Source: Prauserella isguenensis
Lineage (GTDB): Bacteria > Actinomycetota > Actinomycetes > Mycobacteriales > Pseudonocardiaceae
Length of the DNA: 64,000 bases
Direction of reading: 5' to 3'
NCBI RefSeq assembly: GCF_014191605.1
Contig: NZ_JACHWU010000001.1
Coordinates: 1,488,001 to 1,552,000, forward strand
Shown: piece after piece, positions 24,288 through 47,930 of the stretch
Numbering within the stretch: the first letter of the stretch is position 1
Layout: every line of letters starts with the position of its first letter
Translations under genes and position numbers: made by a program
Notes under the pieces: model-generated
Told to the model about the DNA's origin: nothing
The model's database searches: none
The model's input: only the letters and a program-made list of their open reading frames with translations

Positions 24288-25127
24288 TCACTGCGGGTGG
24301 GGACGTAACGTCCGGTTCTCCGTGCTCGAGGTCCTTCTCTTCGGGCCTGCCGGATCGTAACCCGACAGTCTGTTGTCGACCCGGTCCTTTGCGTCGGTCA
24401 GGATGTCGAAGTACAAATCCCTGACCCGTTGACTCGGCGCCATTCCCATCTCGCGGTCCATCGTGTCGGAAAATCTGTTCAACTCCGCCAATGCCGAAGC
24501 CGACTGGCCCAGGTAGTACAGCGCAATCATGCGGAGCTCGCGATAGTTCTCGTTCAACGGACGCTCGACGGTCAATTGTCCGATCTCGTGCGCCGCGCCA
24601 GCATAGTCCCGATTCTTGATTCGTTGTATCGCCAGTCGCTCGGACACCTGTCGCCGCAGTTCTTCGAGAAGTGTCGCTTCGCTGAGGCAACGTCCGCCGT
24701 CGTTGATTCCCATCAATGCGGGTCCGCTCCACATGTCGAGGACTTCGATACAGCGTTGGATGTCGACATCCGGATCCCGCAGGATTTCTTCAGCCGCACT
24801 ACGGAAAGCCAGCGCATCGACCTGACCTCGTTCCACGTCGAGCAGGTATCCACCGGGGACGGTCTTCAGATGTTCCGGTGACCAGTCGCTTTGCTTCATG
24901 AACGAGCGGCTGCGCGTGACCGCGGCGTGCAGTGCGTTTTTGGGCTCCCGTGGCTGATTGTCTCCCCACAGTTCGCCCATGAGGGTGGAACTACGTACCG
25001 GTTTCCCGGCTTCGAGGGCGAGCAAGGCCAGGCAGCCTTGTACGAGCTTGGAGCGAACATGCCGGTTCTCGACGCCGCTGCGCACCGCAATATTTCCAAG
25101 CAACTGCAACTTTATTTCGTTTTTCAT
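24288..25127 (-). CDS. redD: SARP-family pathway regulator (RedD-like)
   Basis: 279 residues. The N-terminal OmpR-type winged helix (IKLQLLGNIAVRSG ... LVQGCLALLALEAGKPVRSSTLMGELWGDNQPREPKNALHAAVTRSRSFM) is followed by a bacterial transcriptional activation domain with tetratricopeptide-like helices (RDYAGAAHEIGQLTVERPLNENYRELRMIALYYLGQSASALAELNRF). This two-domain layout defines SARPs such as RedD and ActII-ORF4, which bind phased heptamer repeats and recruit RNA polymerase. It is the leftmost cluster gene. Codon use is visibly less GC-rich than in flanking genes, a sign of different origin. Three phased heptamers lie upstream of the biosynthetic operon. Confidence 0.85.
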   Translation of the reverse strand: MKNEIKLQLLGNIAVRSGVENRHVRSKLVQGCLALLALEAGKPVRSSTLMGELWGDNQPREPKNALHAAVTRSRSFMKQSDWSPEHLKTVPGGYLLDVERGQVDALAFRSAAEEILRDPDVDIQRCIEVLDMWSGPALMGINDGGRCLSEATLLEELRRQVSERLAIQRIKNRDYAGAAHEIGQLTVERPLNENYRELRMIALYYLGQSASALAELNRFSDTMDREMGMAPSQRVRDLYFDILTDAKDRVDNRLSGYDPAGPKRRTSSTENRTLRPHPQ

Positions 25128-25487
25128 CGTCCGCTACCCCCAGGTCAGCCTGCATTTCTGCTCGGGTGGTCGCAGTTGCACCGTCGACGGTCGCTGACGA
25201 CGCTCTGGTCCCGCTGAGCACTGTTGTCACCCTATCGCGTGGCGCCAGCTGGCAGTCCTGAAACCGACTACTCCGCAGTGCAAGGTGGTTCATACCTCAC
25301 CGGTGCACTACGGACACGATGTCAATAGTCGAAAGTCCTAATTGTTGCAATAAGGTGTTTCGCGGAGAAGAGGTCTCGGGTTCGAGTGGAGCCGGCGAGG
25401 CTCAACTGTGTCCCTGTTCCGGTGGTCGTGCGCGGTGTGTGACTACCCAGTGGGGCCGGCTGGCTGTCCTGATTCCGTTCGCCCAGC
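25128..25487. other. Intergenic region between the SARP gene and the redV-like gene
   Basis: 360 bases, less GC-rich than the surroundings, containing no supportable gene. A minus-strand TTGACA (25320-25325) is present, but no convincing -10 element stands at normal spacing. I see no clear terminator for the redV-like gene. Confidence 0.4.
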
Positions 25488-26567
25488 TCAGTTCGCAGCG
25501 GACGTACCAGCGGTGGGTGTCGAGAGCACGGCGAGCGGATCGCGCCGCGGCGCTGATGTTCCGACACGTCCGGGAAGCCGATGGCCGATCCTGGCGGCGA
25601 AGAAGGCCCTGCCTGACAGGCCGAGGCGCTGTTCGAGCACCGTTCGCGAATCATCATGTTGAAGCAGGACGGACACGGGGTGCAGTCCCAGGTTCACCCG
25701 GCTCGCCGCGAGCCACATGCGGTGCATGTCCGCTCCCGCCCATATCCAGTCCGACGACGAGCGGACCGTGTTCGGAGCCGTCAGCACGAGGAATCCCGGT
25801 CCCGTCTCGACCGCCGACGCGAGGCCGCGGGCGAGCTTGTCGGCGAGTCCGGCCCGACCGATGAAGGGCATAAGGGCCGGTGATGTCAGGGCTACGACCA
25901 GGTGGTCGATCGGCCAGGGCCGTCGCCCGAAGATCTGGCCGTAACTGAACCCGTCGGACGCGGATGCCGCCACCGCGTCCCGGTGAAGATAGTGGACGGT
26001 CTCCTTCCATGCCTTACGGTGCAGGAAATCGCGCGGCGCGAACTGGCGGGTCAATTCGGCGACCTCGGCAAGCTCGTCGCTGCCCGTCAGTAGTTGCACG
26101 TTCGGAAGCGGTGTCGCCGGCGCCCATTCCGGCCGTGTCCGTGCCGCATCGGCGAGCGCGTCCCGGATGTCGGAACGGATCGGGGTCTCGGCATACGCTC
26201 CGCGATCGGTACGACGCTCGGTGATCAACGCAGCGTCGTTCTTCGAATCCGGGGACACCTCCGCTGGGACCATCCGACCGCGTATGGTCGCCCGGCCGGA
26301 TGCCGCCGGTTCGGCGTCGCAGTCGAGGGCCCACCCGCGTGCTCGCAGCGCAACCGCGAGACCGTACCAGTACGCACCGAGACTGAGCAGCATCTCGTAC
26401 CGGTGGCCCGGAAGCGCGGTCAGTTCCCGGTTCCGGTCGATGCCGAGTTCCAGCACCGTGCCGTCGTCGTTGTCGGTGACCTTCAGCTCCCACGCCTGGG
26501 AATTATGCGATGAAGGACTGTGAACGGCGACGCTGAGCGCCTCTCGAAGAGCATTGTGTTGCTGCAT
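25488..26567 (-). CDS. redV: Nitroreductase-fold flavoprotein, RedV/PigM-like HBM oxidase
   Basis: 359 residues of the Acg-type/nitroreductase-like FMN-binding group. Visible features are the N-terminal FMN-phosphate region SVAVHSPSSHNSQAWELKV, a central ITERRTDRGAYAETPI, and the C-terminal GPGFLVLTAPNTVRSSSDWIWAGADMHRMWLAASRVNLGLHPVS. In prodiginine pathways RedV/PigM oxidises 4-hydroxy-2,2'-bipyrrole-5-methanol to the aldehyde. MQQHNAL at 26567 is the start, with AGGAGAGGT in front. It diverges from the redO operon across a 533-base control region. Assignment rests on fold plus cluster context. Confidence 0.75.
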   Translation of the reverse strand: MQQHNALREALSVAVHSPSSHNSQAWELKVTDNDDGTVLELGIDRNRELTALPGHRYEMLLSLGAYWYGLAVALRARGWALDCDAEPAASGRATIRGRMVPAEVSPDSKNDAALITERRTDRGAYAETPIRSDIRDALADAARTRPEWAPATPLPNVQLLTGSDELAEVAELTRQFAPRDFLHRKAWKETVHYLHRDAVAASASDGFSYGQIFGRRPWPIDHLVVALTSPALMPFIGRAGLADKLARGLASAVETGPGFLVLTAPNTVRSSSDWIWAGADMHRMWLAASRVNLGLHPVSVLLQHDDSRTVLEQRLGLSGRAFFAARIGHRLPGRVGTSAPRRDPLAVLSTPTAGTSAAN

Positions 26568-26713
26568 TCGGACCTCTCCTCGGTTGAGTTCGTGATCACG
26601 TCCGATGGCCGCGCATCGGGTTGGCGGCGTTCGGCCCGGCCCCTTCGACCCTGCCGATTCGCTCCGGCCGATCACGACGCCGGGCGGGCCGCAGGCGCCG
26701 ACAACGGTCGGAG

Positions 26714-26743
26714 CGAAGACAGCGATGGGGCGAAGACAGCGAT
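26714..26743. repeat. 13-bp direct repeat with 17-bp period in the redV-like leader
   Basis: CGAAGACAGCGAT occurs at 26714-26726 and 26731-26743, inside the predicted untranslated leader of the redV-like gene. Confidence 0.75.
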
Positions 26744-26802
26744 CGGGGCGAGGATGTCGGTCAACAGAGCCGAAAGTTCCGCCGGCGGCAGCGCACGGCC
26801 GT

Positions 26803-26831
26803 ATCGTACGGACACGCGTTTTGTAGTCTAA
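26803..26831 (-). promoter_or_regulatory. Promoter candidate for the redV-like gene
   Basis: Minus-strand TTAGAC (26826-26831), 17-bp spacer, TACGAT (26803-26808). The predicted leader is about 230 bases and includes the 13-bp direct repeat. Confidence 0.5.
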
Positions 26832-26837
26832 CGCAGA

Positions 26838-26880
26838 CTTCCGGAAGCTGTTCGTTGTTCGGCAGTTCCCGAACTGTTCG
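26838..26880. promoter_or_regulatory. Palindrome cluster in the redV/redO control region
   Basis: Within 43 bases there are three dyads: CTTCCGGAAG (26838-26847), GTTCGGCAGTTCCCGAAC (26857-26874) and CGAACTGTTCG (26870-26880). TGTTCG also recurs at 26849, 26856 and 26875. The block lies directly upstream of the redV-like promoter and is a probable binding site for a regulator other than the SARP. Confidence 0.5.
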
Positions 26881-26965
26881 CTTCACCGCCATGCCGAGTG
26901 CGGAAACCGTGGCTGTGAGGCGAAATAACTGGTCAGCATGCGTGCACGGGTCGTCGTGGTCGTAC

Positions 26966-27022
26966 CTGTCAGCGTGTTGTCAGGCCGTTTCGCGCGGGTT
27001 GTCATGATCATCTGGGTACCGT
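26966..27022 (+). promoter_or_regulatory. SARP-type operator and promoter of the prodiginine operon
   Basis: Three heptamers on the + strand, CTGTCAG (26966-26972), TTGTCAG (26977-26983) and TTGTCAT (26999-27005), are spaced 11 and 22 bases, the helical phasing used by SARP activators. A TACCGT hexamer (27017-27022) downstream may serve as -10, 11 bp beyond the last repeat (8 bp is the usual distance). The start codon of redO is at 27101. Confidence 0.6.
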
Positions 27023-27100
27023 CCGTCGTGTGCTGACCGACGTCTCAGAGAGTCATTCGCGCCGAAGTGCCGTTACCCCGGAACGGAAGGAGGCGGCAGC

Positions 27101-27361
27101 GTGAGTTCGATTGAGTCGAGCCTCGTCGAGTATGTCTCGGGCAACCTGTTGGAAGGAAGCGTCGAGGGGCTCGACGCGGACACACCGCTACTCGAGCTGA
27201 ACATCCTGGACTCCGTCGAAGTCCTGACCATCGTGCAGTTCATGCAGTCCGAGTTCGGGGTCGCGGTTCCGGTGGGGCGAGTCGTTCCCGAGAACTTCGG
27301 GTCGGTGCGTGCGATGTGCGGACTCGTGGCCGAACTGAAACAGGAGGCGAACGGCGTATGA
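27101..27361 (+). CDS. redO: Prolyl carrier protein RedO-like (PCP/ACP)
   Basis: 86 residues forming a single four-helix carrier protein. The phosphopantetheine attachment site is Ser38 in LELNILDSVEVL. In prodiginine biosynthesis RedO/PigG carries L-proline, which becomes pyrrole-2-carboxylate while bound. GTG 27101 is supported by GGAAGGAGG 7 bases upstream. It is the first gene of the long + strand operon, and its stop overlaps the redN start as ATGA, so stoichiometry is probably linked by translational coupling. Confidence 0.88.
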   Translation: MSSIESSLVEYVSGNLLEGSVEGLDADTPLLELNILDSVEVLTIVQFMQSEFGVAVPVGRVVPENFGSVRAMCGLVAELKQEANGV

Positions 27362-28995
27362 CCACCCCCGCCGACGAAACTCGGACCAAAACCGTCCTCG
27401 GTGTGATTGCGGAACACACCGGCTACTCCCTGGAGGAGCTCGGCGAGGACGCCGTTCTTGAGGACGAACTCGGCATCGACTCGCTGATGCGCGAATGGGT
27501 CCTCGCCGACCTGGAGACGAGGTTCCAGCTACCGAAGTCGCTGGACCGCGAGGCCGCCACGGTCGGGGACATCGTGGCCGGTGTCAGTGCATTGGTAGCC
27601 ACAATGGACGGTATACCACCTGCAACGATGCCGGACCTCCCGGCCGCCGAGGGCCACGCCGTCGGCGCAGCGTCGGGCGTCTGCGCAGCGTCGGGCGACG
27701 GTGAGACGACGAGCGACGGTGACACGACGAAGCCGGGCGAAACGATGAAGGACTTCGGCCCGGACGGCGACGCCGACCTCTTCGCGAAGGCGGCACGGTT
27801 CGCCGACCACCGTCGGCGCCGGGAGACAGATCAACTCTACTGGTACGGAATGCCGTCCTCGGGACGGTTGACCGGACGCGGCGTCTACCACGACATGCAG
27901 GTCGGGCGCAGCGCCGAGTACCTCGTCTTCGCCTCGAACAACTACCTCGGCCTGGCCAACGATCCGCGCGTCGCGGACGCCATTGCGGATGCCGCGCGGT
28001 CGTTCGGTGCCACCAACACCGGCAGCCGGATCATCGGCGGCACGACCGAGCTTCATCTCGAGCTCGAACGGCGACTCGCGGAGTTCAAGGGCCGCGACGC
28101 CTGCATCGTCTTCCCCGGTGGCTACTCGGCGAACCTGGGCACGATCTCCGCGCTGGCCGGTCCCGCCGATCACGTGCTCAGCGACAGCCTCAATCATATG
28201 TCCCTTGTGGATGGAGCACAGCTGGCGGGTGCGCGCCGGTTGTCCTTCGCTCACAACAACATGCAGGCCCTGGAACAGCGGCTCCAGCAGGTCGCCGAGC
28301 GGCCTGGCGGAACGCTCGTGGCCGTCGACGGTGTCTTCAGCATGCACGGCGACGTCTGCCCGCTGCCCGAACTCGTGGAACTGACCCGCCGCTACGGCGC
28401 GCGGCTGCTCGTCGACGATGCCCATTCGACGGGTGTGCTGGGTAGCACCGGTTCGGGTACGGCCGAGCACTTCGGAATGAAGGGCGAGGTCGACCTCGAG
28501 GTCGGCACGATGAGCAAGGCACTCGCGGGCGTGGGCGGCTTCGTGGTCGGCGAGGCCGAAGTCATCAACTACCTGCGCTACTACGCGCACTCCTACGTCT
28601 TCGCCGCGACGACACCGGCGCCGATGGTCGCGGGTCTGATCGCCTCGCTGGAGATCCTCCAGAAGGAGCCCGCGCTGCTCGAAGGGCTGTGGCGCAACAT
28701 CCGCCGGCTCCGCGATCGGCTGCGGGCGGACGGATTCGATCTGGAGAACTCGGAGAGCGCGATCCTGCCGGTCGTGGTCGGTGACGAGGACGTTGCGCTG
28801 CGGTTCGGCCGCGAGGTGCGCGCACGTGGGATGTTCTGCCAGACGGTCGTCTATCCCGGTGTCCCGATCGGACAGGCTCGGCTGCGTATCAGCGTCGGGG
28901 TGGAACACACCGACGCCGACCTCGACGCGGCCGCGGACATCGTGCGCGACTCGGCGGACGCGATCGGCTTCGACCGCAGCGGCGTGGCGGCATGA
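27358..28995 (+). CDS. redN: RedN-like ACP/alpha-oxoamine synthase
   Basis: 545 residues. Residues 1-85 are an ACP (Ser42 in LGIDSLMREWV); residues 150-540 are a PLP-dependent alpha-oxoamine synthase (SNNYLGLANDP, IVFPGGYSANLG, DDAHSTGVLG, Schiff-base Lys387 in GTMSKALAGVGG). RedN/PigH condenses the ACP-bound pyrrolyl-beta-ketothioester with L-serine, giving 4-hydroxy-2,2'-bipyrrole-5-methanol. Serratia PigH has two N-terminal ACPs; here there is one, followed by a roughly 60-residue Gly/Thr/Asp-rich linker whose DNA contains direct repeats. The start ATGA overlaps redO. Confidence 0.9.
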   Translation: MTTPADETRTKTVLGVIAEHTGYSLEELGEDAVLEDELGIDSLMREWVLADLETRFQLPKSLDREAATVGDIVAGVSALVATMDGIPPATMPDLPAAEGHAVGAASGVCAASGDGETTSDGDTTKPGETMKDFGPDGDADLFAKAARFADHRRRRETDQLYWYGMPSSGRLTGRGVYHDMQVGRSAEYLVFASNNYLGLANDPRVADAIADAARSFGATNTGSRIIGGTTELHLELERRLAEFKGRDACIVFPGGYSANLGTISALAGPADHVLSDSLNHMSLVDGAQLAGARRLSFAHNNMQALEQRLQQVAERPGGTLVAVDGVFSMHGDVCPLPELVELTRRYGARLLVDDAHSTGVLGSTGSGTAEHFGMKGEVDLEVGTMSKALAGVGGFVVGEAEVINYLRYYAHSYVFAATTPAPMVAGLIASLEILQKEPALLEGLWRNIRRLRDRLRADGFDLENSESAILPVVVGDEDVALRFGREVRARGMFCQTVVYPGVPIGQARLRISVGVEHTDADLDAAADIVRDSADAIGFDRSGVAA

Positions 28996-30501
28996 CCGGG
29001 ATCGTGAGTGGCCTGCACCGCGAGGTCGTCGAGCTGTCGGCGCCCGAAGCCGGGGTCAGCGGGTCGATCGCGCTGGCGGGCGAGACGCCGTGCTCCTACG
29101 GCGAGCTCTGGTCGCGGGTCGAGGCCGTGGCGGGTGCGCTCGCCGACGCCGGCGCCGGCCCTGGCGAACGGGTCGCGATCTGGCTACCGAAGGGTGCCGA
29201 CTATGTCGCCGCGATCCTCGCGACGCTGCGGCTCGGCGGGTGTTACGTCCCCCTCGACGCGGCCCAGCCCGCGGCCCGTGCCCACGTGGTGCTGAACGAC
29301 GCGGACCCGGCGGTACTCGTCACGTCGTCCGACCTCGTCGCCGGGTTCGCCGCCGACGAGCTTCCCCGGATCGTCGACCCGGCCGGCCTCCAGGCTCGGA
29401 ACGTCCCGGCGTCGCCGGGCAACCCCACGCCCGAGGACGATGCGGCGCTGCTCTACACGTCGGGTTCGACGGGCAAGCCCAAGGGCGTGCGGTTGACGCA
29501 CCGTAACGTCGCCGCGTTCGTTCGCTGGTGCCTCGAGGACTTCCCGACGAGCGACGAAGACCTCGTCGTCAACCACGCTCCGTTCACTTTCGACATCAGC
29601 CTGCACGGACTGTTCGTGCCGCTCGCGGTCGGTGCCTCACTGCTGGTGCTGTCCGATGAGGACCGGACCAATCCGAAGGCGATGGCCGCGGCGATCGAAC
29701 GGGAACGCCCGACCATGTGGTACTCGGTGCCGTTCGCGCTCGACCTCATCGTCAGGGAGGTGCCCGACGCGCTCGGTCCTGACACCTCGCTGCGCACCGT
29801 GCTCTACGCCGGGGAGGAATACCCATCCGCACGGCTGGCCGAGCTCTCGCGCCGGCTCCCCGCGGAAACGGTCATCGGCAATCTCTACGGGCCGACGGAA
29901 ACCAACGTCTGCATCGCGCACGTCGTCGACAGGGACGAGCTGGACGGCACGACGCCGGTGCCGCTCGGCAGTCCGGTCGCGGGCGCCGAGATCTCCCTCA
30001 TCGATGACGACGGGGCGCGGATCACCGAAGCCGGCGACCTCGGCGAGATCGTCGTCACGGGGTCGTGTGTCTCCCCCGGTTATCGAGGCAGGGACCCGCG
30101 TCCCGCGATCGACGACCGGGGAACACGGCAGTACCACACCGGTGACCTCGGCTTCTACGACGAACGGGGCCGGCTGTGTTTCCAGGGGCGCGCCGACCGG
30201 CAGGTGAAACTCGGCGGCTATCGCGTGGAACTCGGTGAGGTCGAGGCCGCACTCGCGCAGCTGCCCGGTGTCCACGAGGTCGCGGTCGAACGGGTGGTGA
30301 CGCAGGAGCGTGCCCAGCTCGTCGCCTTCCTCACCGCCGACGAGCCGGCTCCCGGTCTCATCGACGTCAAACAGCACTGCGCGAGGCTCGTGCCTCGCTA
30401 CATGATTCCCCACCGTGTAAGGAAATTGGACTCCATGCCACGCAATGCCAACGGCAAGGTCGACCACGGCCGCCTCGCCGAACTGTATGCCGAGACCGAG
30501 G

Positions 30502-30509
<8 letters not shown>
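28992..30509 (+). CDS. redM: RedM-like L-prolyl-AMP ligase
   Basis: A 505-residue free-standing NRPS adenylation domain. Core motifs: A3 LLYTSGSTGKPKGV at about 153-166, A5 NLYGPTETNVC, A7 YHTGDLG, A8 GRADRQVKLGGYRVELGEVE and A10 NANGKVDHGRL with the catalytic Lys near the C-terminus. RedM/PigI activates L-proline and loads it on RedO. ATG 28992 overlaps the redN stop (ATGA). Its stop in turn overlaps the redL start region. Length and domain order are normal for the family. Confidence 0.9.
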
Positions 30510-37910
<7,401 letters not shown>

Positions 37911-38690: not shown

Positions 38691-39715
38691 CCAAACTGCG
38701 CACACTCGCCGATATGCTCGGGGCCAGTTGGATCCCGAGCCTGAGCATGGTCCAGGCCAGGCTCATGCGGCCGTTCTACCGGATGACGTTCCTCGCCGCC
38801 GCGGCTCGTTCGGGGCTGCTGGCCGAACTCCGCGGCGGCAGGCGGCTCGACCGCGCAGGCGTCATCCGGGCGCTCCGGGCCCACGCCCGCCCCGAGCTCA
38901 TCGGGCCCTGGCTCGACATCGGTGTCGAGGTCGGCGTACTCGCCCGTGACAACAGCGGCGCCTACCGTCTCCGCGGGCTGGACGGCCGGCTGCTCGCCAA
39001 GGACCCGTCCGGCGTGGCGGTGGCCGGTCTGCTGGAAGTCGCGCTGTACCACCGGCAGGCGATCATGTCCGCTCCCCGGTTCGCCGTCGAAGGCGGCGGG
39101 CTCAACCACGCCGATCAGGACCCGGCCGTCATCGCGCGGTCCACCCGGCTCGTGCAGCCGCTGATCGAGTCCGCAGTGCGGGACACGGTGCGAGACCACG
39201 AGCCGCGGACGTGGCTGGAGGTCGGCGCCGGTGACGGGCACTACGCCCAGTACGCGGCCGCCGCGGACCCGGTGCTGGAAGTGACGTGCCTGGAAATGCA
39301 GGAAGAGCTCGTCGACACGATGGCACAGCGATTCGCGTCGACCGGGCAGAGAAGCCGGCTGCGGGCCAGGTTCGGCGACATTCGCGACGTCGAGCTCGAC
39401 GAGCAGTACGACGTCGTGACACTGCACAACCTCCTGTACTACTTCCCGGAGGATCAACAGTGCGACGTCCTGGAACGGTGCCGGAAGCTGCTGCGTCCGA
39501 ACGGGACACTGCTGCTCACGACGAGCGTGCCCGGCAAGGTGACCTCGGTGTCCGCGCTCGACCTCTGGTTCCGCTGCTCCGACTTCGGCTCTCCGCTGCC
39601 CGACGAGCACGGCCTCGAAGAAGCCTTGAACACCAGTGGGTTCCGTGACGTTCGGATGTACCGGCCGCTGTCGGCGTTCTCGCTTGTGGCCGTGACAGCA
39701 ACCAACCCAGCCTGA
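38687..39715 (+). CDS. redI: RedI-like SAM-dependent O-methyltransferase
   Basis: A 342-residue class I methyltransferase with an N-terminal helical dimerisation region and a Rossmann SAM domain (motif I TWLEVGAGDGHYAQYAAA, motif II LEVTCLEMQEELVD, LHNLLYYFPEDQQ). RedI/PigF methylates the 4-hydroxyl of HBC to give MBC, and these enzymes are of this length. GTG 38687 overlaps the redJ stop. Position between redJ and redH equals that in S. coelicolor, which supports the assignment over the second methyltransferase downstream. Confidence 0.87.
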   Translation: MTKLRTLADMLGASWIPSLSMVQARLMRPFYRMTFLAAAARSGLLAELRGGRRLDRAGVIRALRAHARPELIGPWLDIGVEVGVLARDNSGAYRLRGLDGRLLAKDPSGVAVAGLLEVALYHRQAIMSAPRFAVEGGGLNHADQDPAVIARSTRLVQPLIESAVRDTVRDHEPRTWLEVGAGDGHYAQYAAAADPVLEVTCLEMQEELVDTMAQRFASTGQRSRLRARFGDIRDVELDEQYDVVTLHNLLYYFPEDQQCDVLERCRKLLRPNGTLLLTTSVPGKVTSVSALDLWFRCSDFGSPLPDEHGLEEALNTSGFRDVRMYRPLSAFSLVAVTATNPA

Positions 39716-39729
39716 CAGGGAGTGCGACG

Positions 39730-42357
39730 ATGACTACGGAGATCAACACCCAGGCCCCTGCCGACATCGAAGGCATCGTGCGGCTGGGTGAGGGATCGCG
39801 CCTGCCGGATCCGGCGGCGCAGCTCGGCGGCAAAGGGCTGCGGCTGGACGCGCTGGCCGCCCGAGGCTTTCCCGTTCCACCCGGATTCTGCTTGACGAGC
39901 GGCCTGCTCGAGGGCGGCAAGCTGACCGACACCGCAGCCGAGGCGCTGGTCCAGGCCTACCGCGAGCTCGGGTCGCCGACGGTCGCGGTCCGTTCGTCGG
40001 CCGCCAACGAGGATCAGGGCGCCGCCTCGGCCGCGGGTGTGTACGAAACCGTGCTGGGGGTGAGGGACGAGACCGAGCTCGTCGAAGCGGCCAGGACGTG
40101 TCTCGAATCGGCCACATCGGAACGCAGTCGCAGCTACCACGGCGATTCCGGCGAGGTCGGAATGGCGGTCGTGGTGCAGCACCTCGTCGACGCCAACGCG
40201 TCCGGCGTACTGTTCACTGTGGACCCCGTCACCGGCGACCGCCGGCACCTGGTCGCCGAGGCGTGCTGGGGAGCGGGTGAAGGCCTCGTCCAGGGACGGG
40301 TGCACACCGACGAGTTCCGACTGGACGCGGAAACCGGTGCGGTCGCCGACCGCACCGTGCGGAACAAGTCGCACAAGGTGGTCGTCAGCCCCGGTTCGGG
40401 CCCCGAGGTGGTCGACGTCCCCAAGTCCAAACAGGACAAGCCTTGCCTGACCAAGTCGCAGCTCGCCGAACTCGGCCGCATCGCACGGACGATCCGCGAC
40501 GACGAGCAGGGCGACGTCGACATCGAGTTCTGCTGCACCGCCGACACGGTGTGGGTGCTCCAGTCGCGTCCGGTCACGGCGGTCGGTGGCAGGCAGGAGG
40601 AGGCGCTGTCGCCGTATCAGTCCCGGGTCCCGGATACGGTTCGGGACGGCACCATGTGGTCGCGCATGGACATCGGCGAGATCTTCAACGGGATCATGAC
40701 GCCGATGGGGCTGAGTTTCTCCCGGTACTACCAGGAGAACGTCCACATCGACTGTGTCCGGAGCACGGGTATCGCCGAGCTCGGCCATTCGGACGTGCAC
40801 ATGGGCTATCTCGGTGGGTACGTCTACCTGAACATCTCCTACACCGCGCACATGCTGCAGCAGGCGCCGCCGCAGCGGGACCAGTCGTTGTTCACCGAGC
40901 GGTTCCGCAGTGAGCAGACCGCCGAGCAGCCGTACGAGAACCCGTTCGGCCAGTTCCCGGGCGGTATGCCGCTGTGGCGCGGCAGCGCCTACTGGGTGGC
41001 ATCGACGCTGCGCGAGATGGCGACGATGCACGCGCGGGCCCGATCGCTGACCGCTTCGCGGCACCGCGAGTACGAACGCGCGCGGGGCGAAGACCTCACG
41101 GCCCTGTCGCGCGCCGAACTCGGCGACCGGTTGCGCCACGCCCTCGACTACTTCCACCGCACGCACGTCGGCTACATGCCGTACTACTTCAACGCGATCG
41201 GCTTCTACCGGATCCTGGACAACCTGTGCGGGTCGTGGTTGAACGGGGCGTCGGCGGCCGAGGTCGTCGACGGGGTCAAGTCGAACATGTCCGCGCTGCG
41301 CACCGTCCGCACCGCCGGTGATCTCGCGGAGCTCGCCCGGGTCGCCGCAGGCCTGCCCGAGGTCAAGAACGTGGTGACCACCCTTCCCGGGTCGGAGGCA
41401 CGGTCGGCGTTGGAAACGACCGCCGAGGGCAAGGCGTTCCTCGAACAGCACGTCGAACCGTTCATGCGCGAGCACGGAACCCGTGGGTCGCAGGAGATGG
41501 AGCTCTCGCACCCGCGGTGGGTGGACGACTGGACCTACGTGATGTCCATGCTGTCCAACTACCTCTCCCAGCCCGGGCTCCTCGACACCGTCGAACACCA
41601 CGTGCAGAACCGCATGGAGCCCGACGACGTCCTGTCCTCGCTGAGTCGGCCTCGTGCGGCCGCGCTCCGGCAGGTGATCAAGGGCTATGCGACGTTCAGC
41701 AGGCTGCGGGAAGTCACGCGGATGCCGATGGTGACCGCCATCTGGATGGTGCGTCGGGTCGTGGTCGAGGCCGCGCGGCGTGCCGTCGAATCCGGACTGC
41801 TCGCGTCGCAGGACGAGGTCTGGTACCTCGACTTCGACCGGCTGCGGCAGTACCTCGCGGGCGAACTGAGCCAGGAGGAGTTCTTCTCCGCCAAGGACGT
41901 GGCCGCGGGCCGCGAACTCCACGAGGCGCGACTGCAGGCGCCCGAACCGCCGCTGACGATCATCGGGACCTGGGACGGACGTGACCAGAGCAAGCGCCGC
42001 GACCGGACCGCGGACGTGCTGGAAGGGTTCGGCACGAGCGCGGGTCGGGCCACCGGTACGGCACGCGTGGTGACCGACATGCACGCCCAGTCCGGGGAGT
42101 TCCAGGCAGGCGAGATTCTGGTGACGACGTTCACCGACGCGTCGTGGACCCCGTTGTTCGCCATGGCGGCAGGCGTCGTCACCGACACCGGGTCGATGTT
42201 GTCGCACTCCTCGATCGTCGCCAGGGAACTGAAGATCCCGTCGGTGGTCAACACCCACTACGGCACCACGGCGATCGCGACCGGCGACGTCGTCCGGATC
42301 GACGGCACGACGGGTGTCGTGGAGATCCTCGAGCGCCGTTCAGAGGCCGCGGAATGA
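39730..42357 (+). CDS. redH: RedH/PigC-like prodiginine-condensing ligase
   Basis: 875 residues with PEP synthase/pyruvate phosphate dikinase architecture: N-terminal ATP-grasp domain (LAARGFPVPPGFCLT, VAVRSSAANEDQGAASAAGVYETVL, GVLFTVDP), a central region specific to this family, and a C-terminal swivelling phosphohistidine domain with His826 in SMLSHSSIVARELKIPSVVN. RedH/PigC (about 890 residues) uses ATP to couple MBC with a 2-alkylpyrrole, forming the tripyrrole pigment. ATG 39730 follows a GGGAG site 14 bases after redI. This is the most diagnostic gene of the cluster. Confidence 0.92.
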   Translation: MTTEINTQAPADIEGIVRLGEGSRLPDPAAQLGGKGLRLDALAARGFPVPPGFCLTSGLLEGGKLTDTAAEALVQAYRELGSPTVAVRSSAANEDQGAASAAGVYETVLGVRDETELVEAARTCLESATSERSRSYHGDSGEVGMAVVVQHLVDANASGVLFTVDPVTGDRRHLVAEACWGAGEGLVQGRVHTDEFRLDAETGAVADRTVRNKSHKVVVSPGSGPEVVDVPKSKQDKPCLTKSQLAELGRIARTIRDDEQGDVDIEFCCTADTVWVLQSRPVTAVGGRQEEALSPYQSRVPDTVRDGTMWSRMDIGEIFNGIMTPMGLSFSRYYQENVHIDCVRSTGIAELGHSDVHMGYLGGYVYLNISYTAHMLQQAPPQRDQSLFTERFRSEQTAEQPYENPFGQFPGGMPLWRGSAYWVASTLREMATMHARARSLTASRHREYERARGEDLTALSRAELGDRLRHALDYFHRTHVGYMPYYFNAIGFYRILDNLCGSWLNGASAAEVVDGVKSNMSALRTVRTAGDLAELARVAAGLPEVKNVVTTLPGSEARSALETTAEGKAFLEQHVEPFMREHGTRGSQEMELSHPRWVDDWTYVMSMLSNYLSQPGLLDTVEHHVQNRMEPDDVLSSLSRPRAAALRQVIKGYATFSRLREVTRMPMVTAIWMVRRVVVEAARRAVESGLLASQDEVWYLDFDRLRQYLAGELSQEEFFSAKDVAAGRELHEARLQAPEPPLTIIGTWDGRDQSKRRDRTADVLEGFGTSAGRATGTARVVTDMHAQSGEFQAGEILVTTFTDASWTPLFAMAAGVVTDTGSMLSHSSIVARELKIPSVVNTHYGTTAIATGDVVRIDGTTGVVEILERRSEAAE

Positions 42358-44696
42358 GCCCGAGGGCACAGGTCGTCGGCACCGCGGTCGTCCCGGCCGC
42401 GGAGGCAGGAGACAAGGCCGAGTTGCTACGGCGCAACCGGATTCCGCCCAACCAGGCGATTTCCGTGGGGCCGCTGCAGCAGCTCGCGCTGCGCGCAGCC
42501 GAGGAGTGTCTGGCAGCGGTCGCGCTCACCGACGAGGACCGTGCCCGGACGGCGGTTTTCGTCGGGGTCACGGGAAACCACGTGCTGCAGCGGCGCAACG
42601 CACTGCGCATCGCCGCCGGGCAGGCGCCCGCATGGGGCGAACACGGTGCGGAACCCGACGCCGCCGTGGACGCTGCCTGCGAGGTGTTCGGTGCCGGCCC
42701 CCACGACAAGATCGGCGAGATGGCGAGCAGTGTGCCGTCGCGGATCGCGATCGCCCACCGGTTGGGCGGGCGGGTGCTGTCACTCGATGCGCACGAGGCG
42801 ACCGGCGCGGTGGGGCTGTGGCATGCGCGGCATTGTGTGACGGCGGGTGCCGCATCGGCGGTGCTGCTGGTCCTCGTCGACGAGGACGAGACGAACGCCG
42901 CGCGTACGGCGTTCTACGCGGATACGGGTCGGCCGGGCGAGTTTCGGCAGGGCAGGGCCGTGGCGATGCTGCTGCGGCCCGAGGGCGCCGACGCCGCGGG
43001 CGGGGCGGTGGTCGACGAGATCCGGTTCGACCGCCGCTCCGGCGGCGGCGTCCACGGCTACGCCGCCGCCGAACCGGAGGACCTGGACACCTGGCTGGAG
43101 GGAATCGTTCCGGACACGGGCGACTTCGCCCTGCGTGGTGACGACTTCCTGCCGGCAGCCGCTCGCTCGCACACGCTCGCGACGGCCCGGCACCGTCCCT
43201 CCGGCAGGACGGCGGCGGGTTCGGTCCGGGTGACGGACACGATGTTGGACCTCGTCGATGCCGCCGAGGACTGCCGTACCGAGCAGGCGGTACTGACGCT
43301 GCTCGGTACGGCCTCGACCGCGCTGGCGGCGGTGATGTACCGGCGGGCGGGTTCGGACGACTCGGAGGCGGCCGCGCCGCGGGACCGCCCCGCGGTGGTC
43401 GTCGACGGTGCGGGCGCCTGGTTCGGCGACCGGCAGGGCCTCGACGGTTTCCGCGAACTGTCGGTGCGGGGGCAGCCGTGCTTCGACGATCTCGGCCACC
43501 GCGTTCCGGCGCACATGCGGAGCGAAGGGCGGATCCGGCTCGGCCGCGCCTACTCGCACAGAGGGGCGAGCACGGAGCTGCCGGACGGGGTGGACCCGGT
43601 CCGCCACGCCGCCCTCGAAACCTGCAGGGAAGCGGTCTCGCGGTCGGCGAGTGACCTGTCCGGCCGTGGTCTCGTCCTGGTCGCGACGCCGTTGGGCCCG
43701 GCGGCAGGGCGGCTCTGCGACGCCGATTCGGACGAGACGGCGTCGGCGCTGGACGCCGTCGCCGGGCGGATCGGTGCCGGGCCGGAGGCCGCCGCGGAAG
43801 CGCGGAAATGGTTGGCCGCGTTCGCCGAGCGGAGCGGCGCCGCGGCGCAGTCGCTGGGCGAACTGCACTCGGCTTCGATCGCCGGTTTCGTCGCGGAGGA
43901 ACTCGGCCTCGACGCGCTGCCGGTGGCGGTGGAGGCCGCGTGCGCCTCCGCATTGGCGGCCGTGGATGTCGCCGTCGGAGCGTTGCGCGCGGGCGACGTC
44001 GACTACGCCGTGGTCTGCGGCGTCGAATTCCCCACGTCGTGCCGGGACCTGGCGTTGTGTTCGGCACTGGGCATGCTCAGCACAACCGCGCTCACCGCGT
44101 TCGGCGCCGCGGCCGACGGGTTCCTGCCCGGCGACGGAGCCGGTGCGCTCGTGCTCGTGCGGTCCGACCGGCTCGGCGCAGCCGGTGCGGGTGGGGCGAC
44201 CACCGGCATCCGGGGAATCGGAGGGTCGTGCGACGCCCACTCGATGCTCGCGCCCTCGGCCGCCGGGCAGACGGCCGCGATGAGCGCGGCGTTGGCTGAC
44301 GCGGACGTGTCCCCGGCGAGCATGGCCTTCATCGAGACACACGGCACCGGCACGTTGCGTGGCGACGCCATCGAACTCGAATCCATCCGCACGGCATACG
44401 GAGCGGGGTCGATCGCTCTCAGCGCCGTCAAGTCGCTGGTCGGGCACACCTTCGCCGCCGCGGGGATCGCCGGACTATTGCGGGCGGTCACCGCGCTGGA
44501 GGACGGCGTCGTACCACCGAGCGCGGGGCTGAGCGACGAAGACGCTGCGCGGTTGGCCGACGACGGGTTTCTCGTGTCGCCGGTACCGCAGCCGTTCCGG
44601 GCCGAACCGGGTGGGCGCACCACAACCGCTGCCGTCAGCTCGTTCGGCACCGGCGGCATCAACTATCACATCGTGGTCGACAGGAGCGAGACATGA
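42354..44696 (+). CDS. redX: RedX/PigJ-like tandem ketosynthase
   Basis: 780 residues containing two ketosynthase-fold halves. The first (about 1-390) is degenerate: where the active Cys should stand, SLDAHEATGAVGLWHA has Glu148. The second (about 400-780) is complete, with Cys530 (EAACASALAA), His663 (ETHGTGTLRGD) and His698 (LVGHTFAAAG). This matches PigJ/RedX, which condenses pyrrolyl-2-carboxyl thioester with malonyl-ACP. The arrangement recalls a KS/chain-length-factor pair in one chain. ATG 42354 overlaps the redH stop, and the stop overlaps redW. Confidence 0.88.
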   Translation: MSPRAQVVGTAVVPAAEAGDKAELLRRNRIPPNQAISVGPLQQLALRAAEECLAAVALTDEDRARTAVFVGVTGNHVLQRRNALRIAAGQAPAWGEHGAEPDAAVDAACEVFGAGPHDKIGEMASSVPSRIAIAHRLGGRVLSLDAHEATGAVGLWHARHCVTAGAASAVLLVLVDEDETNAARTAFYADTGRPGEFRQGRAVAMLLRPEGADAAGGAVVDEIRFDRRSGGGVHGYAAAEPEDLDTWLEGIVPDTGDFALRGDDFLPAAARSHTLATARHRPSGRTAAGSVRVTDTMLDLVDAAEDCRTEQAVLTLLGTASTALAAVMYRRAGSDDSEAAAPRDRPAVVVDGAGAWFGDRQGLDGFRELSVRGQPCFDDLGHRVPAHMRSEGRIRLGRAYSHRGASTELPDGVDPVRHAALETCREAVSRSASDLSGRGLVLVATPLGPAAGRLCDADSDETASALDAVAGRIGAGPEAAAEARKWLAAFAERSGAAAQSLGELHSASIAGFVAEELGLDALPVAVEAACASALAAVDVAVGALRAGDVDYAVVCGVEFPTSCRDLALCSALGMLSTTALTAFGAAADGFLPGDGAGALVLVRSDRLGAAGAGGATTGIRGIGGSCDAHSMLAPSAAGQTAAMSAALADADVSPASMAFIETHGTGTLRGDAIELESIRTAYGAGSIALSAVKSLVGHTFAAAGIAGLLRAVTALEDGVVPPSAGLSDEDAARLADDGFLVSPVPQPFRAEPGGRTTTAAVSSFGTGGINYHIVVDRSET

Positions 44697-45862
44697 TCCA
44701 CCTGCCGATGGCACCCGTGTCGCCCGAGGTGGCCGGGCTCTGCGACTGGGCTCGGTCCGCCGGGGACATGCTGGCTGCCGGCCCCGGCGACCCGGCACAG
44801 GACCTGCGCCGCCGCTTCGCCGAGGCGGGAAAGATCGGGCTGACGGGGCTGACCGTGCCGGAGGAGTACGACGGTGCGGGTCTGTCGGCGACCTCGGCTA
44901 CAGCGATCACCGAGGCGCTGGGTGAGAGCGTGGCCGACGCGGGATTCGTGTTCTCGCTCGCCGCGCACCTGTACGCCTGTGTCGCTCCGATCGCGGAGTT
45001 CGGCACCGCCGAGCAGAAGAGCCGGTGGCTCCCCGGACTCGCCGACGGGTCGCTGATCGGCGCGTTCGCCGTGACCGAGGCCGACGCCGGTTCGGACATC
45101 ATGTCGATGCGGACCTCGGCCACCCAGCACGACGACGGGTGGCACATCGCGGGAACGAAGTCGATGATCACCAACGCGCCCGTCGCGGACGTGGTCCTCG
45201 CGGTCGTCCGCACCGGGGAAGGCCGTTCCTTCTTCAACACGAGTGCCTTCGTGGTGGAGCGTGGAACCGAGGGATTCGATGCCGGAGCGCCGTACGACAA
45301 ACGAGTACTCGCCACGTCCCTGTTGGGAGACCTCTGGTTCGACGACTGCCGGGTCGCCGAGCGCGACATGCTCGGCTCCCGCGGTTCCGGCGGTGCGGTT
45401 TTCTCGACGGGGATGTCGTGGGAACGGGTCTGCCTGTTCGGGCTCTACCTCGGGCAGCTGCGCCGGGTGCTGCGGGAAACCGCCGACTACCTCGAAGGGC
45501 GGACGCAGTTCGGCCAGCCCATCGCGCGATTCCAGGCCGTTTCGCACGAAATCGCCGAGTGTGCCGTCGCGTTGGAGTCGGCGCGCAGCCTGCTCTTCCG
45601 TGCCGCCGCCGCGATGGACGCCGGTGCCACCGACGCCGGCGTGCTCGGCGACATGGCCAAGGTGACCGTCAGCCGCACGGCGGTCGACATCGGACTGCGG
45701 TGCGTCCAGCTGCAAGGCGGCCACGGGGTGACGTCGTCCACCGCCGTCGACGTTCTCCTCGACGCTTTGCCCTCCCGGGTCTTCTCCGGGTCCAACGAAG
45801 TCCAGATCGGCAACATCGCGCGTTCCATCGGAGCCGCGAAGCCGACCAGGGCGGCCGGTTGA
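44693..45862 (+). CDS. redW: RedW-like L-prolyl-PCP dehydrogenase
   Basis: A 389-residue acyl-CoA-dehydrogenase-fold flavoprotein. Motifs: GAFAVTEADAGSD (FAD/substrate loop), MITNAPVADVVL, FGQPIARFQAVSHEIAE and the C-terminal QLQGGHGVTSST ... VFSGSNEVQIGNIARSIG. The usual late catalytic Glu is absent from VFSGSNE; instead Glu244 in MSWERVCLFG is placed as in isovaleryl-CoA dehydrogenase and PigA, whose catalytic base has the same number. It oxidises prolyl-RedO to pyrrolyl-2-carboxyl-RedO. ATGA overlap with redX. Confidence 0.9.
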   Translation: MIHLPMAPVSPEVAGLCDWARSAGDMLAAGPGDPAQDLRRRFAEAGKIGLTGLTVPEEYDGAGLSATSATAITEALGESVADAGFVFSLAAHLYACVAPIAEFGTAEQKSRWLPGLADGSLIGAFAVTEADAGSDIMSMRTSATQHDDGWHIAGTKSMITNAPVADVVLAVVRTGEGRSFFNTSAFVVERGTEGFDAGAPYDKRVLATSLLGDLWFDDCRVAERDMLGSRGSGGAVFSTGMSWERVCLFGLYLGQLRRVLRETADYLEGRTQFGQPIARFQAVSHEIAECAVALESARSLLFRAAAAMDAGATDAGVLGDMAKVTVSRTAVDIGLRCVQLQGGHGVTSSTAVDVLLDALPSRVFSGSNEVQIGNIARSIGAAKPTRAAG

Positions 45863-45915
45863 GCCGCATCGGCGACCGGCTGCACCAATACGGGGTGACA
45901 AGAAAGGAAAAACAA

Positions 45916-46239
45916 TTGCAGGCACTGATAATCCACGACATCGAGCTGTTGCCGGAAACGACTTCCGAGCAGTTCGAGAAGTTCGTGACCACGCGCGACT
46001 ACGTCGAGTGCGCGAACTTCGACTGCATCCGGAGCTTCGTCGTCGTGCGGGCGGACGAGAGCGGCCGTGCCTACCGTGAGCTGATCCAGGTCACGGACAT
46101 GGACGCGTTCATCACGGCCACGAAGACCGAGCGGTTCGCCGAGCTCGAGAAGGACTTCTCCGCGCTCGCCCGGATCACCGGCGAGGAAACGACGTACAGC
46201 ACCGTCGGTACGGGCTACGTCGCTGGGGGCGTGGAGTGA
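45916..46239 (+). CDS. redY: RedY/HapK-like small protein
   Basis: A 107-residue alpha/beta protein of ferredoxin-like fold, with QALIIHDIELLPETTSEQFEKFV at the start and DMDAFITATKTERFAELEKDF later, resembling HapK/PigK and RedY (Pfam REDY-like HapK). The biochemical role in prodiginine assembly is unclear; PigK has been suggested to assist the bipyrrole branch. TTG 45916 is chosen because AAAGGA lies 7 bases upstream; an in-frame GTG at 45895 lacks a site. The 53-base gap from redW is the longest within the operon. Confidence 0.83.
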   Translation: MQALIIHDIELLPETTSEQFEKFVTTRDYVECANFDCIRSFVVVRADESGRAYRELIQVTDMDAFITATKTERFAELEKDFSALARITGEETTYSTVGTGYVAGGVE

Positions 46240-47441
46240 GGTTCGAGGAGCTGGACCGGCAGCGGCAGCAAGCCGCGCGACAGAACGGTCTGACCGGCGA
46301 GGTGGCCGAGACGGTCCGCAACGCCAGGGAGACCTACGAGCAGGACCCGACACAGGGGACGCTCGCGGTGATCTCTCGCATCCGCGGGTTCATCCGACAC
46401 ATTGTCACCGGTGTCATCGCCAAGCACTTCCCGGACGCCCGGCTCGAACACCGCGCCGACTGGGACGAGGACATCTACCGCGACCTGATGGTCATGGCGG
46501 CCCGCCTCGGCGTCGTGCACGTCGACGCCCGCACCGGTGACCTGTGGCTCGAACCGCAGTACCGCGAGCTCGTGCTGACCGGCAAGGACGTGTCCGGCCA
46601 GGCGGCCGAGGACGAGGCCGACTACCGGTTCATGCTCGAGGTCGCCGAACTCGGTTCCAGCGAGGAGCCCCCGAAGTGGCTGCTCGGTGCCGACGCCGGC
46701 TACTTCCCGATCATGGTGCGGTACTTCCGTGAGATCGAGAAGATGGAGATGACCCACCGCGTTCCGATGTCGCGCGGCACGTCCTTCTGCTCGGACCTGG
46801 GTGAAACGGCGTTCCTGAGCTTCACCCACCCGACCTTCGAGCAGCTGATCTCGGACCTGGCGCCCACGAGCTTCCTCGACGTGGGTTGCGGTGAGGGATA
46901 CCAGGTCGCCGCCGCAGCCAAGGCCGCGTCGGTCGAGCGGGCACTGGGCGTCGAGATGGACCCGGAGGTCGCGGCCTCGGCCAACACGCGGCTCGCCGAG
47001 TTGCCCGGGGCCGAGGTGCGCGCGGGGAACGTCAACTCGGTTGCGATCGACGACGAGTTCGACCTGGTCTTCGGCTGCTACATGTTGTTCTACATGGAGC
47101 GCGACGACCAGCTCGCGATGCTGCGCAAGGTCAAGGAGCTGCTCGCTCCGGACGGCGTGTTCGTGCTGTGCCAGTATTTCCCGGACTTCACCGACTTCCA
47201 GCAAGTCATGATCGAGAACGCTGGCGGCGCGGGGATCCAGCACTACATCGGCGACGTCGTCAACTCCTGCATCGATGCCGAAGTGTTGCTCAACCAGATC
47301 CTCGAGCACTTCCGCTCGGGTATCTTCTGGCACGAGTACAAGGCCATGTTGGAGGAGGTCGGTTTCGAAGTGAGTGAGATCCGGCCCGCGGACCCGCTGT
47401 TCTACTCGCACTACGTCGTGGCCCGCCGGAGCGAAACGTGA
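46236..47441 (+). CDS. Second SAM-dependent methyltransferase of the cluster, unassigned
   Basis: 401 residues with a roughly 200-residue N-terminal region of unknown fold (EELDRQRQQAARQNGLTGEV ... DVSGQAAEDEADYRFMLEVAEL) and a C-terminal class I SAM domain (TSFLDVGCGEGYQVAAAA at about 211-228, LGVEMDPEVAA, LVFGCYMLFYMERDDQLAML). It is unlike the RedI-type enzyme upstream, and I know no counterpart in the S. coelicolor red or Serratia pig cluster. GTG 46236 overlaps redY (GTGA). It probably adds a methyl group to a pathway intermediate or the final pigment; site and atom are unknown. Confidence 0.8.
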   Translation: MRFEELDRQRQQAARQNGLTGEVAETVRNARETYEQDPTQGTLAVISRIRGFIRHIVTGVIAKHFPDARLEHRADWDEDIYRDLMVMAARLGVVHVDARTGDLWLEPQYRELVLTGKDVSGQAAEDEADYRFMLEVAELGSSEEPPKWLLGADAGYFPIMVRYFREIEKMEMTHRVPMSRGTSFCSDLGETAFLSFTHPTFEQLISDLAPTSFLDVGCGEGYQVAAAAKAASVERALGVEMDPEVAASANTRLAELPGAEVRAGNVNSVAIDDEFDLVFGCYMLFYMERDDQLAMLRKVKELLAPDGVFVLCQYFPDFTDFQQVMIENAGGAGIQHYIGDVVNSCIDAEVLLNQILEHFRSGIFWHEYKAMLEEVGFEVSEIRPADPLFYSHYVVARRSET

Positions 47442-47869
47442 CGGGGCGGCACGGAGTGGGCGCGGCAGGGCGCAAGGTCAGGACGGCGTTGGGCGTCTGC
47501 TACTTGGTGGCAGGCATCGGCAAGTGTGTGCCGAGCTGGGAAAGCACGGAACAGCGGCTCGGCCAGGCGCTGAAGGCCAACCGGAACACGCCGCTCGAAG
47601 GTCCGACCCGATGGCTGCACGAACGGCACGAGGGCACGAACGCGTTCGTCGCGGCCAGCATGGTCGGTGCGGGCGCGGCACTGCTGTCCGACGACGGCCG
47701 CGTTGTCGACGCGGCCCTGGTGGGCACGCTGCCGATGCTCGGTTCGTTCGCGACACTGCTGCACCGGGCACTGCCTCCGGTGGTGCCGGTCGATGCGGCG
47801 TTCGGAGCGGCTGCGGTGTGGGTGCTGCGGCAGCGCCGGCTGGCGGCCAAGGCGTCCCGTTCGGCGTAG
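47438..47869 (+). CDS. Small integral membrane protein closing the prodiginine operon
   Basis: 143 residues with three or four hydrophobic helices: TALGVCYLVAGIGKCV, NAFVAASMVGAGAALL, DAALVGTLPMLGSFATLL and VPVDAAFGAAAVWVL. A basic N-terminus and RQRRLAAKAS C-terminus suggest cytoplasmic ends. It resembles DoxX-like small membrane proteins only in layout. GTG 47438 overlaps the methyltransferase stop (GTGA), so it belongs to the operon, and a strong terminator follows. It could help pigment localisation or self-protection; no function is established. Confidence 0.7.
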   Translation: MTGRHGVGAAGRKVRTALGVCYLVAGIGKCVPSWESTEQRLGQALKANRNTPLEGPTRWLHERHEGTNAFVAASMVGAGAALLSDDGRVVDAALVGTLPMLGSFATLLHRALPPVVPVDAAFGAAAVWVLRQRRLAAKASRSA

Positions 47870-47870
47870 A

Positions 47871-47930
47871 CCGTCCGCGAATTCTGCCCCTGACCGGCGA
47901 GCGCTGGTCAGGGGCAGAATTCGCGGACGG
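47871..47930 (+). terminator. Perfect 25-bp hairpin terminator of the prodiginine operon
   Basis: Arms 47871-47895 and 47906-47930 are perfectly complementary around a 10-base loop, starting 2 bases after the last stop codon. It has no U-tract. It marks the right border of the cluster. Confidence 0.85.

What the first reader, a model, noticed from the sequence alone, without database searches (positions are those of the whole stretch)
24288..47930. Prodiginine-type tripyrrole cluster with a compact variant gene set
The order redO-N-M-L-J-I-H followed by X-W-Y on one strand, with a SARP and a RedV-like flavoprotein beside it, matches the logic of undecylprodigiosin assembly. The RedH/PigC-like ligase (His826), the ACP-oxoamine synthase and the KS-KS protein are diagnostic together. 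Domain motifs were read directly; the pathway is established for S. coelicolor and Serratia. Product identity in this strain is inference.
Basis: partly seen in the sequence, partly recalled or inferred. Interest (0 to 1): 0.85.

Follow-up and report, generated by a model that had tools for sequence, protein, structure and literature searches.

The report
Compact, altered red-pigment gene cluster
A 26-kilobase gene island encodes a prodigiosin-like pigment pathway of a distinct compact type, shared with two propionibacteria (one of them known for its red colour), in which one classical enzyme domain has decayed and an extra methyl-adding enzyme has been gained, so the product is probably a modified prodigiosin.

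Summary
Confirmed: the window holds an unbroken single-strand prodiginine-type operon (redO-N-M-L-J-I-H-X-W-Y, then a second methyltransferase and a DUF6041 protein), with a SARP and an Acg-type nitroreductase beside it; RedH His826 is in place. Comparison within the genus bounds an accessory island at about 22,221-48,071, which also holds a TetR and an NmrA-type NAD(P)-binding gene.

It is not a plain undecylprodigiosin cluster. RedH scores below NCBI's RedH and PigC cut-offs and forms its own deep clade with two Arachnia genomes. One of these, by CTGCAG count and length, is A. rubra DSM 100122T, a species reported as red-pigmented. All three lack redP/redR homologues; in all three the RedK domain fused to RedL has lost its active site (42 of 42 other RedK copies keep it); and all three gain a methyltransferase whose two relatives found elsewhere sit beside ACP-oxoamine synthases.

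Best reading: a compact prodiginine pathway fed by primary fatty-acid synthesis, with an altered third ring. Either the NmrA protein replaces RedK, or ring C stays oxygenated and is methylated. Product, methylation site and expression are untested, and A. rubra's redM reads as frameshifted. Novelty: new variant of a known kind, giving a testable explanation for A. rubra's pigment.

The parts
22221..48071 (.). Accessory island holding the whole unit
   Evidence: G005 and G006 (same genus) align to window up to 22,220 and again from 48,072/48,075; G002 resumes at 48,076; G004 lacks 24,147-48,307
22573..23169 (+). TetR-type regulator
   Evidence: PF00440; 42% homologue beside the NmrA gene in A. 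rubra, none in [P.] massiliense, last 49 residues kept in G004
23256..24137 (+). NmrA-type NAD(P)-binding protein (candidate RedK substitute)
   Evidence: PF13460/PF01370/PF05368; 64-67% identical gene next to the cluster in both Arachnia genomes
24288..25127 (-). SARP activator
   Evidence: PF03704 BTAD, 72.7 bits; about 42% homologues in both Arachnia clusters
25488..26567 (-). Acg-type FMN nitroreductase, RedV-like (ORF open to 26,675; likely start 26,567)
   Evidence: PF00881, NF047509 below its cut-off; 38% to the gene in the S. griseoaurantiacus cluster and in [P.] massiliense; only a 24.5% match in A. rubra
27101..27358 (+). RedO peptidyl carrier protein
   Evidence: PF00550; Ser in ILDS motif
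27358..28995 (+). RedN: one ACP + alpha-oxoamine synthase
   Evidence: PF00155; 66-68% to Arachnia RedN, 54% to S. griseoaurantiacus RedN
28992..30509 (+). RedM prolyl-type adenylation enzyme
   Evidence: PF00501, TIGR01733 over cut-off
30511..37914 (+). RedL: acyl-AMP ligase-ACP-KS-AT-ACP-oxoamine synthase, plus decayed RedK domain
   Evidence: domains; catalytic residues; start at 30,511 or 30,517
37117..37911 (+). Decayed RedK (SDR) domain at the C-terminus of RedL
   Evidence: aligns to fused RedK of S. griseoaurantiacus but lacks the stretch with the YxxxK site
37911..38690 (+). RedJ type II thioesterase
   Evidence: best PDB hits 3qmw/3qmv, 162 and 161 bits; RifR 119 bits
38687..39715 (+). 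RedI O-methyltransferase (MBC half)
   Evidence: 37-38% to Streptomyces RedI; profile with PigF-type rows hits 7clf; the single sequence had no PDB hit at 1e-10
39730..42357 (+). RedH tripyrrole ligase, His826
   Evidence: NF052632 1006 bits, below cut-off 1350; own clade; residues
42354..44696 (+). RedX KS-KS protein
   Evidence: PF00109/PF02801; NF053555 PigJ 237 bits, below cut-off 900; residues
44693..45862 (+). RedW L-prolyl-PCP dehydrogenase
   Evidence: NF045652 419 bits, below cut-off 650
45916..46239 (+). RedY/HapK-like protein (TTG start)
   Evidence: PF11639 50.9 bits; start by ribosome-site-like sequence and homologue alignment
46236..47441 (+). MT2: second SAM methyltransferase with a ~200-aa N-terminal part without Pfam family
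   Evidence: PF13649; 45-46% in both Arachnia clusters
47438..47869 (+). DUF6041 protein, like the N-terminal domain of PigB
   Evidence: PF19507; NF053556 positions 4-123, 69.5 bits, below cut-off 850

Best explanation
The island encodes a compact prodiginine-type pathway. RedO/M/W turn proline into pyrrolyl-carrier; RedX and RedN extend it with malonate and serine to the hydroxybipyrrole; RedI methylates it to MBC. RedJ frees a fatty acid from a general (not cluster-borne) acyl carrier; RedL activates it, adds malonate and condenses it with an amino acid (glycine in the known pathway) to give the third-ring precursor. The RedK domain that should reduce and dehydrate this ring is decayed, so ring C is finished differently: by the NmrA-type protein, by the added methyltransferase MT2, or both. 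RedH joins the two halves. Shown: gene set, order, catalytic residues, missing redP/redR, decayed RedK, conserved MT2 and NmrA. Inferred: all chemistry, expression, chain length, methylation site.
For: Operon and domains; catalytic residues; same order in two Arachnia genomes; RedH clade; RedJ nearest to solved RedJ; no RedP homologue and only the KS domains of RedL/RedX as RedR matches in window and both Arachnia regions; RedK decay in 3 of 3, intact in 42 of 42 others; MT2 relatives beside ACP-oxoamine synthases in 2 of 2 non-cluster cases; island boundaries. Roles of RedJ, RedL, RedK, RedM/O/W and RedX/N as given in PMC12654105 (passages).
Against: RedH, RedX and RedW all score under their NCBI cut-offs. 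RedQ was not searched for by its own sequence; only the six-frame intergenic stretches were scanned for an ACP motif, none found. Two FabH genes over cut-off lie elsewhere in the genome, so a distant RedP-like feed is not excluded. A. rubra redM reads in two frames and its RedL ACP1 has LGIGS for LGxDS. NmrA survives in G004 without the cluster, so it may have a job of its own. No promoter-like site found before redO by a sigma-70 scan.
Confidence: 0.77

Rival explanations
1. Ordinary 2-alkyl prodiginine: the NmrA-type protein has taken over RedK's reduction and MT2 decorates some other position (N- or C-methyl, or the chain).
For: NmrA is in the same broad SDR superfamily (22% to a RedK domain, E about 1e-4), is adjacent in 3 of 3 compact clusters and is among their best conserved proteins (64-67%).
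Against: NmrA lacks a YxxxK site in the alignment, stands in G004 without the cluster, and is not in the operon.
Confidence: 0.4
2. Ring C is never reduced: the RedL product tautomerises to a 4-hydroxy-2-alkylpyrrole and MT2 methylates it, as RedI does on the bipyrrole half, giving a doubly methoxylated prodiginine.
For: Loss of RedK and gain of MT2 go together in 3 of 3; MT2 relatives travel with ACP-oxoamine synthases that are 38-46% like RedL's.
Against: MT2 shares only the 123-column SAM core with RedI; its nearest solved relatives are mixed, not clearly O-methyltransferases; the structure model was too poor to use.
Confidence: 0.27
3. The pathway is not a tripyrrole pathway: this RedH lineage joins MBC to a different nucleophile.
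For: RedH is a separate deep clade below both curated cut-offs; A. rubra also has a second RedH-like gene beside amine-forming enzymes.
Against: A complete RedL with intact condensing and oxoamine synthase sites is in the operon in all three; no amine-forming genes were seen among the island's genes.
Confidence: 0.12
4. A decaying, silent cluster.
For: Decayed RedK domain; cluster absent in G004 with a TetR remnant; A. rubra redM in two frames.
Against: In the window every operon ORF is open with high third-position GC and catalytic residues are kept; the RedK decay is shared by lineages only 41-68% identical, so the rest has long been maintained.
Confidence: 0.1

Closest known systems
   Same: RedO, N, M, L, J, I, H, X, W, Y, DUF6041 and nitroreductase homologues; RedK fused to RedL occurs there too
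   Different: Those have RedP/RedR and an intact RedK; RedN has two ACPs; RedX/W/Y lie apart; no MT2 in the 40 kb read
Serratia-type pig clusters (here Pseudoalteromonas xiamenensis, Thioclava, Methylocystis plasmids)
   Same: MBC half and ligase; 36-37% RedH identity
   Different: They use PigD/PigE/PigB-type genes for ring C; the window has RedL instead
RedH-bearing clusters without RedL (L034, L036, L079, L060, L071, L073), probably tambjamine-type (label recalled)
   Same: RedN/M/I/H homologues; RedN with a single ACP in the three Nocardia loci
   Different: No RedL-type oxoamine synthase in the stretch held
Arachnia clusters ([Pseudopropionibacterium] massiliense L028/G833; A. rubra G860)
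   Same: Same operon order, MT2, NmrA, SARP, decayed RedK
   Different: They add a phosphopantetheinyl transferase; TetR only in A. rubra; nitroreductase clear only in [P.] massiliense

Membership tests
Prodiginine biosynthetic clusters (red/pig) | MBC-half gene set (RedM, O, W, X, N, I) | tested here: met
Prodiginine biosynthetic clusters (red/pig) | RedH/PigC-family condensing ligase with catalytic His | tested here: met
   His826, SRMDIGEIF and VAVRSSA kept; clade beside actinobacterial RedH
Prodiginine biosynthetic clusters (red/pig) | Monopyrrole-forming enzyme (RedL) with working sites | tested here: met
   KS, AT (HAFH), two ACP and oxoamine synthase motifs
Prodiginine biosynthetic clusters (red/pig) | Tripyrrole product | not testable with these tools
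   needs culture or expression
Undecylprodiginine-type red cluster | RedK reductase with active site | tested here: not met
   YxxxK absent in window and both Arachnia RedL; present in 42 of 42 other RedK copies
Undecylprodiginine-type red cluster | Dedicated chain enzymes RedP and RedR | tested here: not met
   no RedP match; RedR matches only KS domains of RedL/RedX
Undecylprodiginine-type red cluster | Dedicated acyl carrier RedQ | tested here: inconclusive
   RedQ itself not searched; no ACP motif in five intergenic stretches
NCBIfam NF052632 RedH equivalog | score over curated cut-off 1350 | tested here: not met
   1006 bits, 980 bits in the six-frame search
NCBIfam NF052631 PigC equivalog | score over curated cut-off 1300 | tested here: not met
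   774 bits

The most novel reading that the evidence does not exclude
A third lineage of prodiginine biosynthesis in which ring C is left oxygenated: RedK has been discarded and an oxoamine-synthase-associated methyltransferase caps the 4-hydroxypyrrole, giving a doubly methoxylated tripyrrole; the same compound class is the unexplained red pigment of the human oral bacterium Arachnia rubra.
Probability: 0.22. Interest if true: 0.78.

Novelty: new variant of a known kind. Interest (0 to 1): 0.57.

Why it matters
It separates a compact prodiginine lineage from red and pig, with a natural experiment on ring C: 42 RedK-keeping relatives against 3 that lost RedK and gained a methyltransferase. 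It offers a testable gene cluster for the red colour reported for A. rubra, which PMC6920887 (passages) sets apart from haemolytic granadaene producers because no haemolysis was seen. It also marks a methyltransferase family tied to ACP-oxoamine synthases, useful for finding further clusters.

Tried and rejected
Structure route: models of MT2 (mean pLDDT 50.2) and the RedL C-terminal domain (54.0), each from two sequences, were too poor, so no fold search was run. The first MT2 alignment held only 60 residues of the second sequence and was replaced. G796, a family member with a 440-bit RedH-model match, was read and rejected: apart from that ligase-like gene only generic adenylation and dehydrogenase matches lie around it. 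The matches in 109 of 150 relatives are at most 33% identical over full length and 231 bits against 1973 for self; taken as PEP-synthase-like. Single ACP in RedN was considered as a mark of the compact type and dropped: three Nocardia loci share it. A cluster insertion beside a resident NmrA gene in the genus was considered and found less likely: NmrA is beside both Arachnia clusters and has no match at 1e-30 in five other genus members. Plasmid search gave only pig-type or PEP-synthase-like matches under 60% identity. Genus name of the window was not established; Pseudonocardiaceae is a guess from genome sizes and genus counts.
Full report
What is there. The operon runs from redO (27,101) to a DUF6041 gene (47,869); successive genes overlap by 1-4 bp or lie 1-53 bp apart. 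Family scans give an adenylation enzyme, a FAAL-ACP-KS-AT-ACP-oxoamine synthase protein, a type II thioesterase, two methyltransferases, a PPDK_N/PEP-utilizer ligase, a KS-KS protein, an acyl-CoA dehydrogenase-type RedW and a HapK-like RedY. RedH His826, SRMDIGEIF and VAVRSSA, the KS, AT, ACP and oxoamine synthase sites of RedL, and the second KS of RedX are in place. The AT carries HAFH, which by recalled knowledge means malonyl-CoA.

How far it is from known clusters. RedH scores 1006 bits against NF052632 (cut-off 1350) and 774 against NF052631 PigC (cut-off 1300); RedW 419 (650) and RedX 237 on PigJ (900) are also below. RedH is 47% and 45% identical to two Streptomyces proteins and 36-37% to three PigC-type proteins. 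3 of 394 class members (own included) match the RedH model at 1e-150, two over cut-off; 2 of 390 family members at 1e-120, own and G796.

Relatives. One scan of 84,980 species gave 62 loci; the closest, 59% over the core, is [Pseudopropionibacterium] massiliense, placed in Arachnia by the NCBI taxonomy; the rest are 40-49%. In the family of that genome 2 of 198 members match at 1e-120: itself and G860, which has two RedH-like genes. In both, the order SARP, NmrA, O-N-M-L-J-I-H-X-W-Y-MT2-DUF6041 recurs, with SARP and NmrA rearranged. Identities to the window (massiliense/G860): N 66/68, M 48/48, L 48/49, J 46/47, I 52/58, H 57/56, X 43/44, W 56/54, Y 49/41, MT2 45/46, DUF6041 61/64, NmrA 64/67, SARP 42/42, O 44/48. 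Both add a phosphopantetheinyl transferase gene; the window genome's only PF01648 match lies at window 4,302-4,538 on the - strand, outside the island.

G860 is A. rubra DSM 100122T. Its contig is 3,316,972 bp; the published genome is 3,316,958 bp with 2,690 modified CTGCAG motifs (PMC8638593, part 1 of 2 of the text read). G860 has 1,345 + 1,345 = 2,690 CTGCAG. PMC6920887 (passages) says red pigmentation was reported for this species without haemolysis; Saito et al. 2018 was seen as a title in reference lists only. Searches of the open library listed no paper that I could see tying Arachnia to prodiginines; most listed papers were not opened and subscription papers are not held. Against this link: A. 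rubra redM reads as two ORFs in different frames, and its RedL ACP1 has LGIGS.

Tree. With 69 rows the window and the two Arachnia RedH form one clade (SH-aLRT 100) on a stem of 1.24; without PEP-synthase rows and the second A. rubra gene it is sister to 50 actinobacterial rows (support 91) when the 13 proteobacterial rows are outside. Both are quick trees and warn of long branches; one locus (L064, 575 aa) was left out for length.

RedK. Of the 62 loci, 24 have RedK fused to RedL, 18 a separate RedK, 6 have no RedL-type oxoamine synthase, 13 have none in the stretch held, and L028 has RedL with no detectable RedK. All 42 RedK copies keep the Gly motif and Y..SK. In the window, L028 and A. rubra the RedL tail aligns to the second half of RedK but lacks the stretch with STxxVYG and YNRSK; the Gly motif survives only in the window. 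RedK is given as the enzyme that reduces and dehydrates the keto-pyrroline (PMC12654105, passages). The only Pfam trace in the window tail is adh_short at E 0.085.

Chain supply. No RedP match and no RedR match beyond the KS domains of RedL and RedX. RedP and RedR do appear in five Actinomadura loci whose flank reaches far enough. RedQ was not searched by itself; no ACP motif lies in the five intergenic stretches. Two FabH genes over cut-off lie elsewhere in the genome. PMC4147253 (passages) tabulates RedJ activity on AcpP as well as RedQ substrates, though its text says RedQ is preferred; a feed from general fatty-acid synthesis is thus possible, not shown.

MT2. It has a SAM domain after about 200 residues with no Pfam family. 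3 of 394 class genomes match at 1e-15: own, G425 and G407. In both others the gene directly follows an ACP-oxoamine synthase and an EryCIII-like glycosyltransferase, with an FtsX-like permease (my reading; no Pfam hit in G407) and, in G407, a KS. MT2 and RedI share only a 123-column SAM core. So MT2 probably acts on an oxoamine-synthase product; the atom is unknown.

Island. G005 and G006 match the window to 22,220 and again from 48,072/48,075, with an 8-kb block 89-90% alike between them in the gap; G002 resumes at 48,076. G004 keeps NmrA at 94% and the last 49 residues of TetR, then joins at window 48,308: it looks like a deletion that spared NmrA. G003's contig ends there and G001 was not fetched. 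NmrA has no match at 1e-30 in G001, G002, G003, G005, G006. Island GC is 69.1% against 70.2% and 71.1% in the flanks.

Verdict. Observation confirmed; interpretation partly supported; a compact, altered variant of a known pathway, with chemistry still to be shown.

Noticed in passing
G860:C1:2947990-2950578 and upstream (loci L104-L105; joined-frame 19,423-25,743): A. rubra has a second RedH-like gene (35% to window RedH, catalytic motifs kept) beside an aldehyde dehydrogenase-family gene and a class III aminotransferase: looks like a tambjamine-type branch sharing MBC.
   Followed up: partly
L124 9110-13649; L126 7187-15190: A small unassigned cluster in two unrelated actinobacteria: EryCIII-like glycosyltransferase, ACP-oxoamine synthase, MT2-family methyltransferase, permease-like protein, and a KS in one.
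   Followed up: partly
window 49434-49507: A 21-bp tandem repeat whose relatives give 46-76 matches in six of seven genus genomes and 3 in G001 (counts include other matches to the same 1.8-kb query).
   Followed up: no
L128-L131: G005 and G006 carry an 8-kb block (lipase-like, MFS-like, FAD enzyme, two SDR, IclR-like, read by eye) where the window has the island.
   Followed up: partly
window 4302-4538: The only PF01648 phosphopantetheinyl transferase match of the genome at E 1e-3 lies in this window but outside the island.
   Followed up: no
L032, L037, L048 and 21 other loci: RedK is fused to RedL in 24 of 42 prodiginine loci and separate in 18.
   Followed up: yes
L104-L105, joined-frame 32,239-33,769: A. 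rubra redM reads as two overlapping ORFs in different frames, a real frameshift or a sequencing error.
   Followed up: partly
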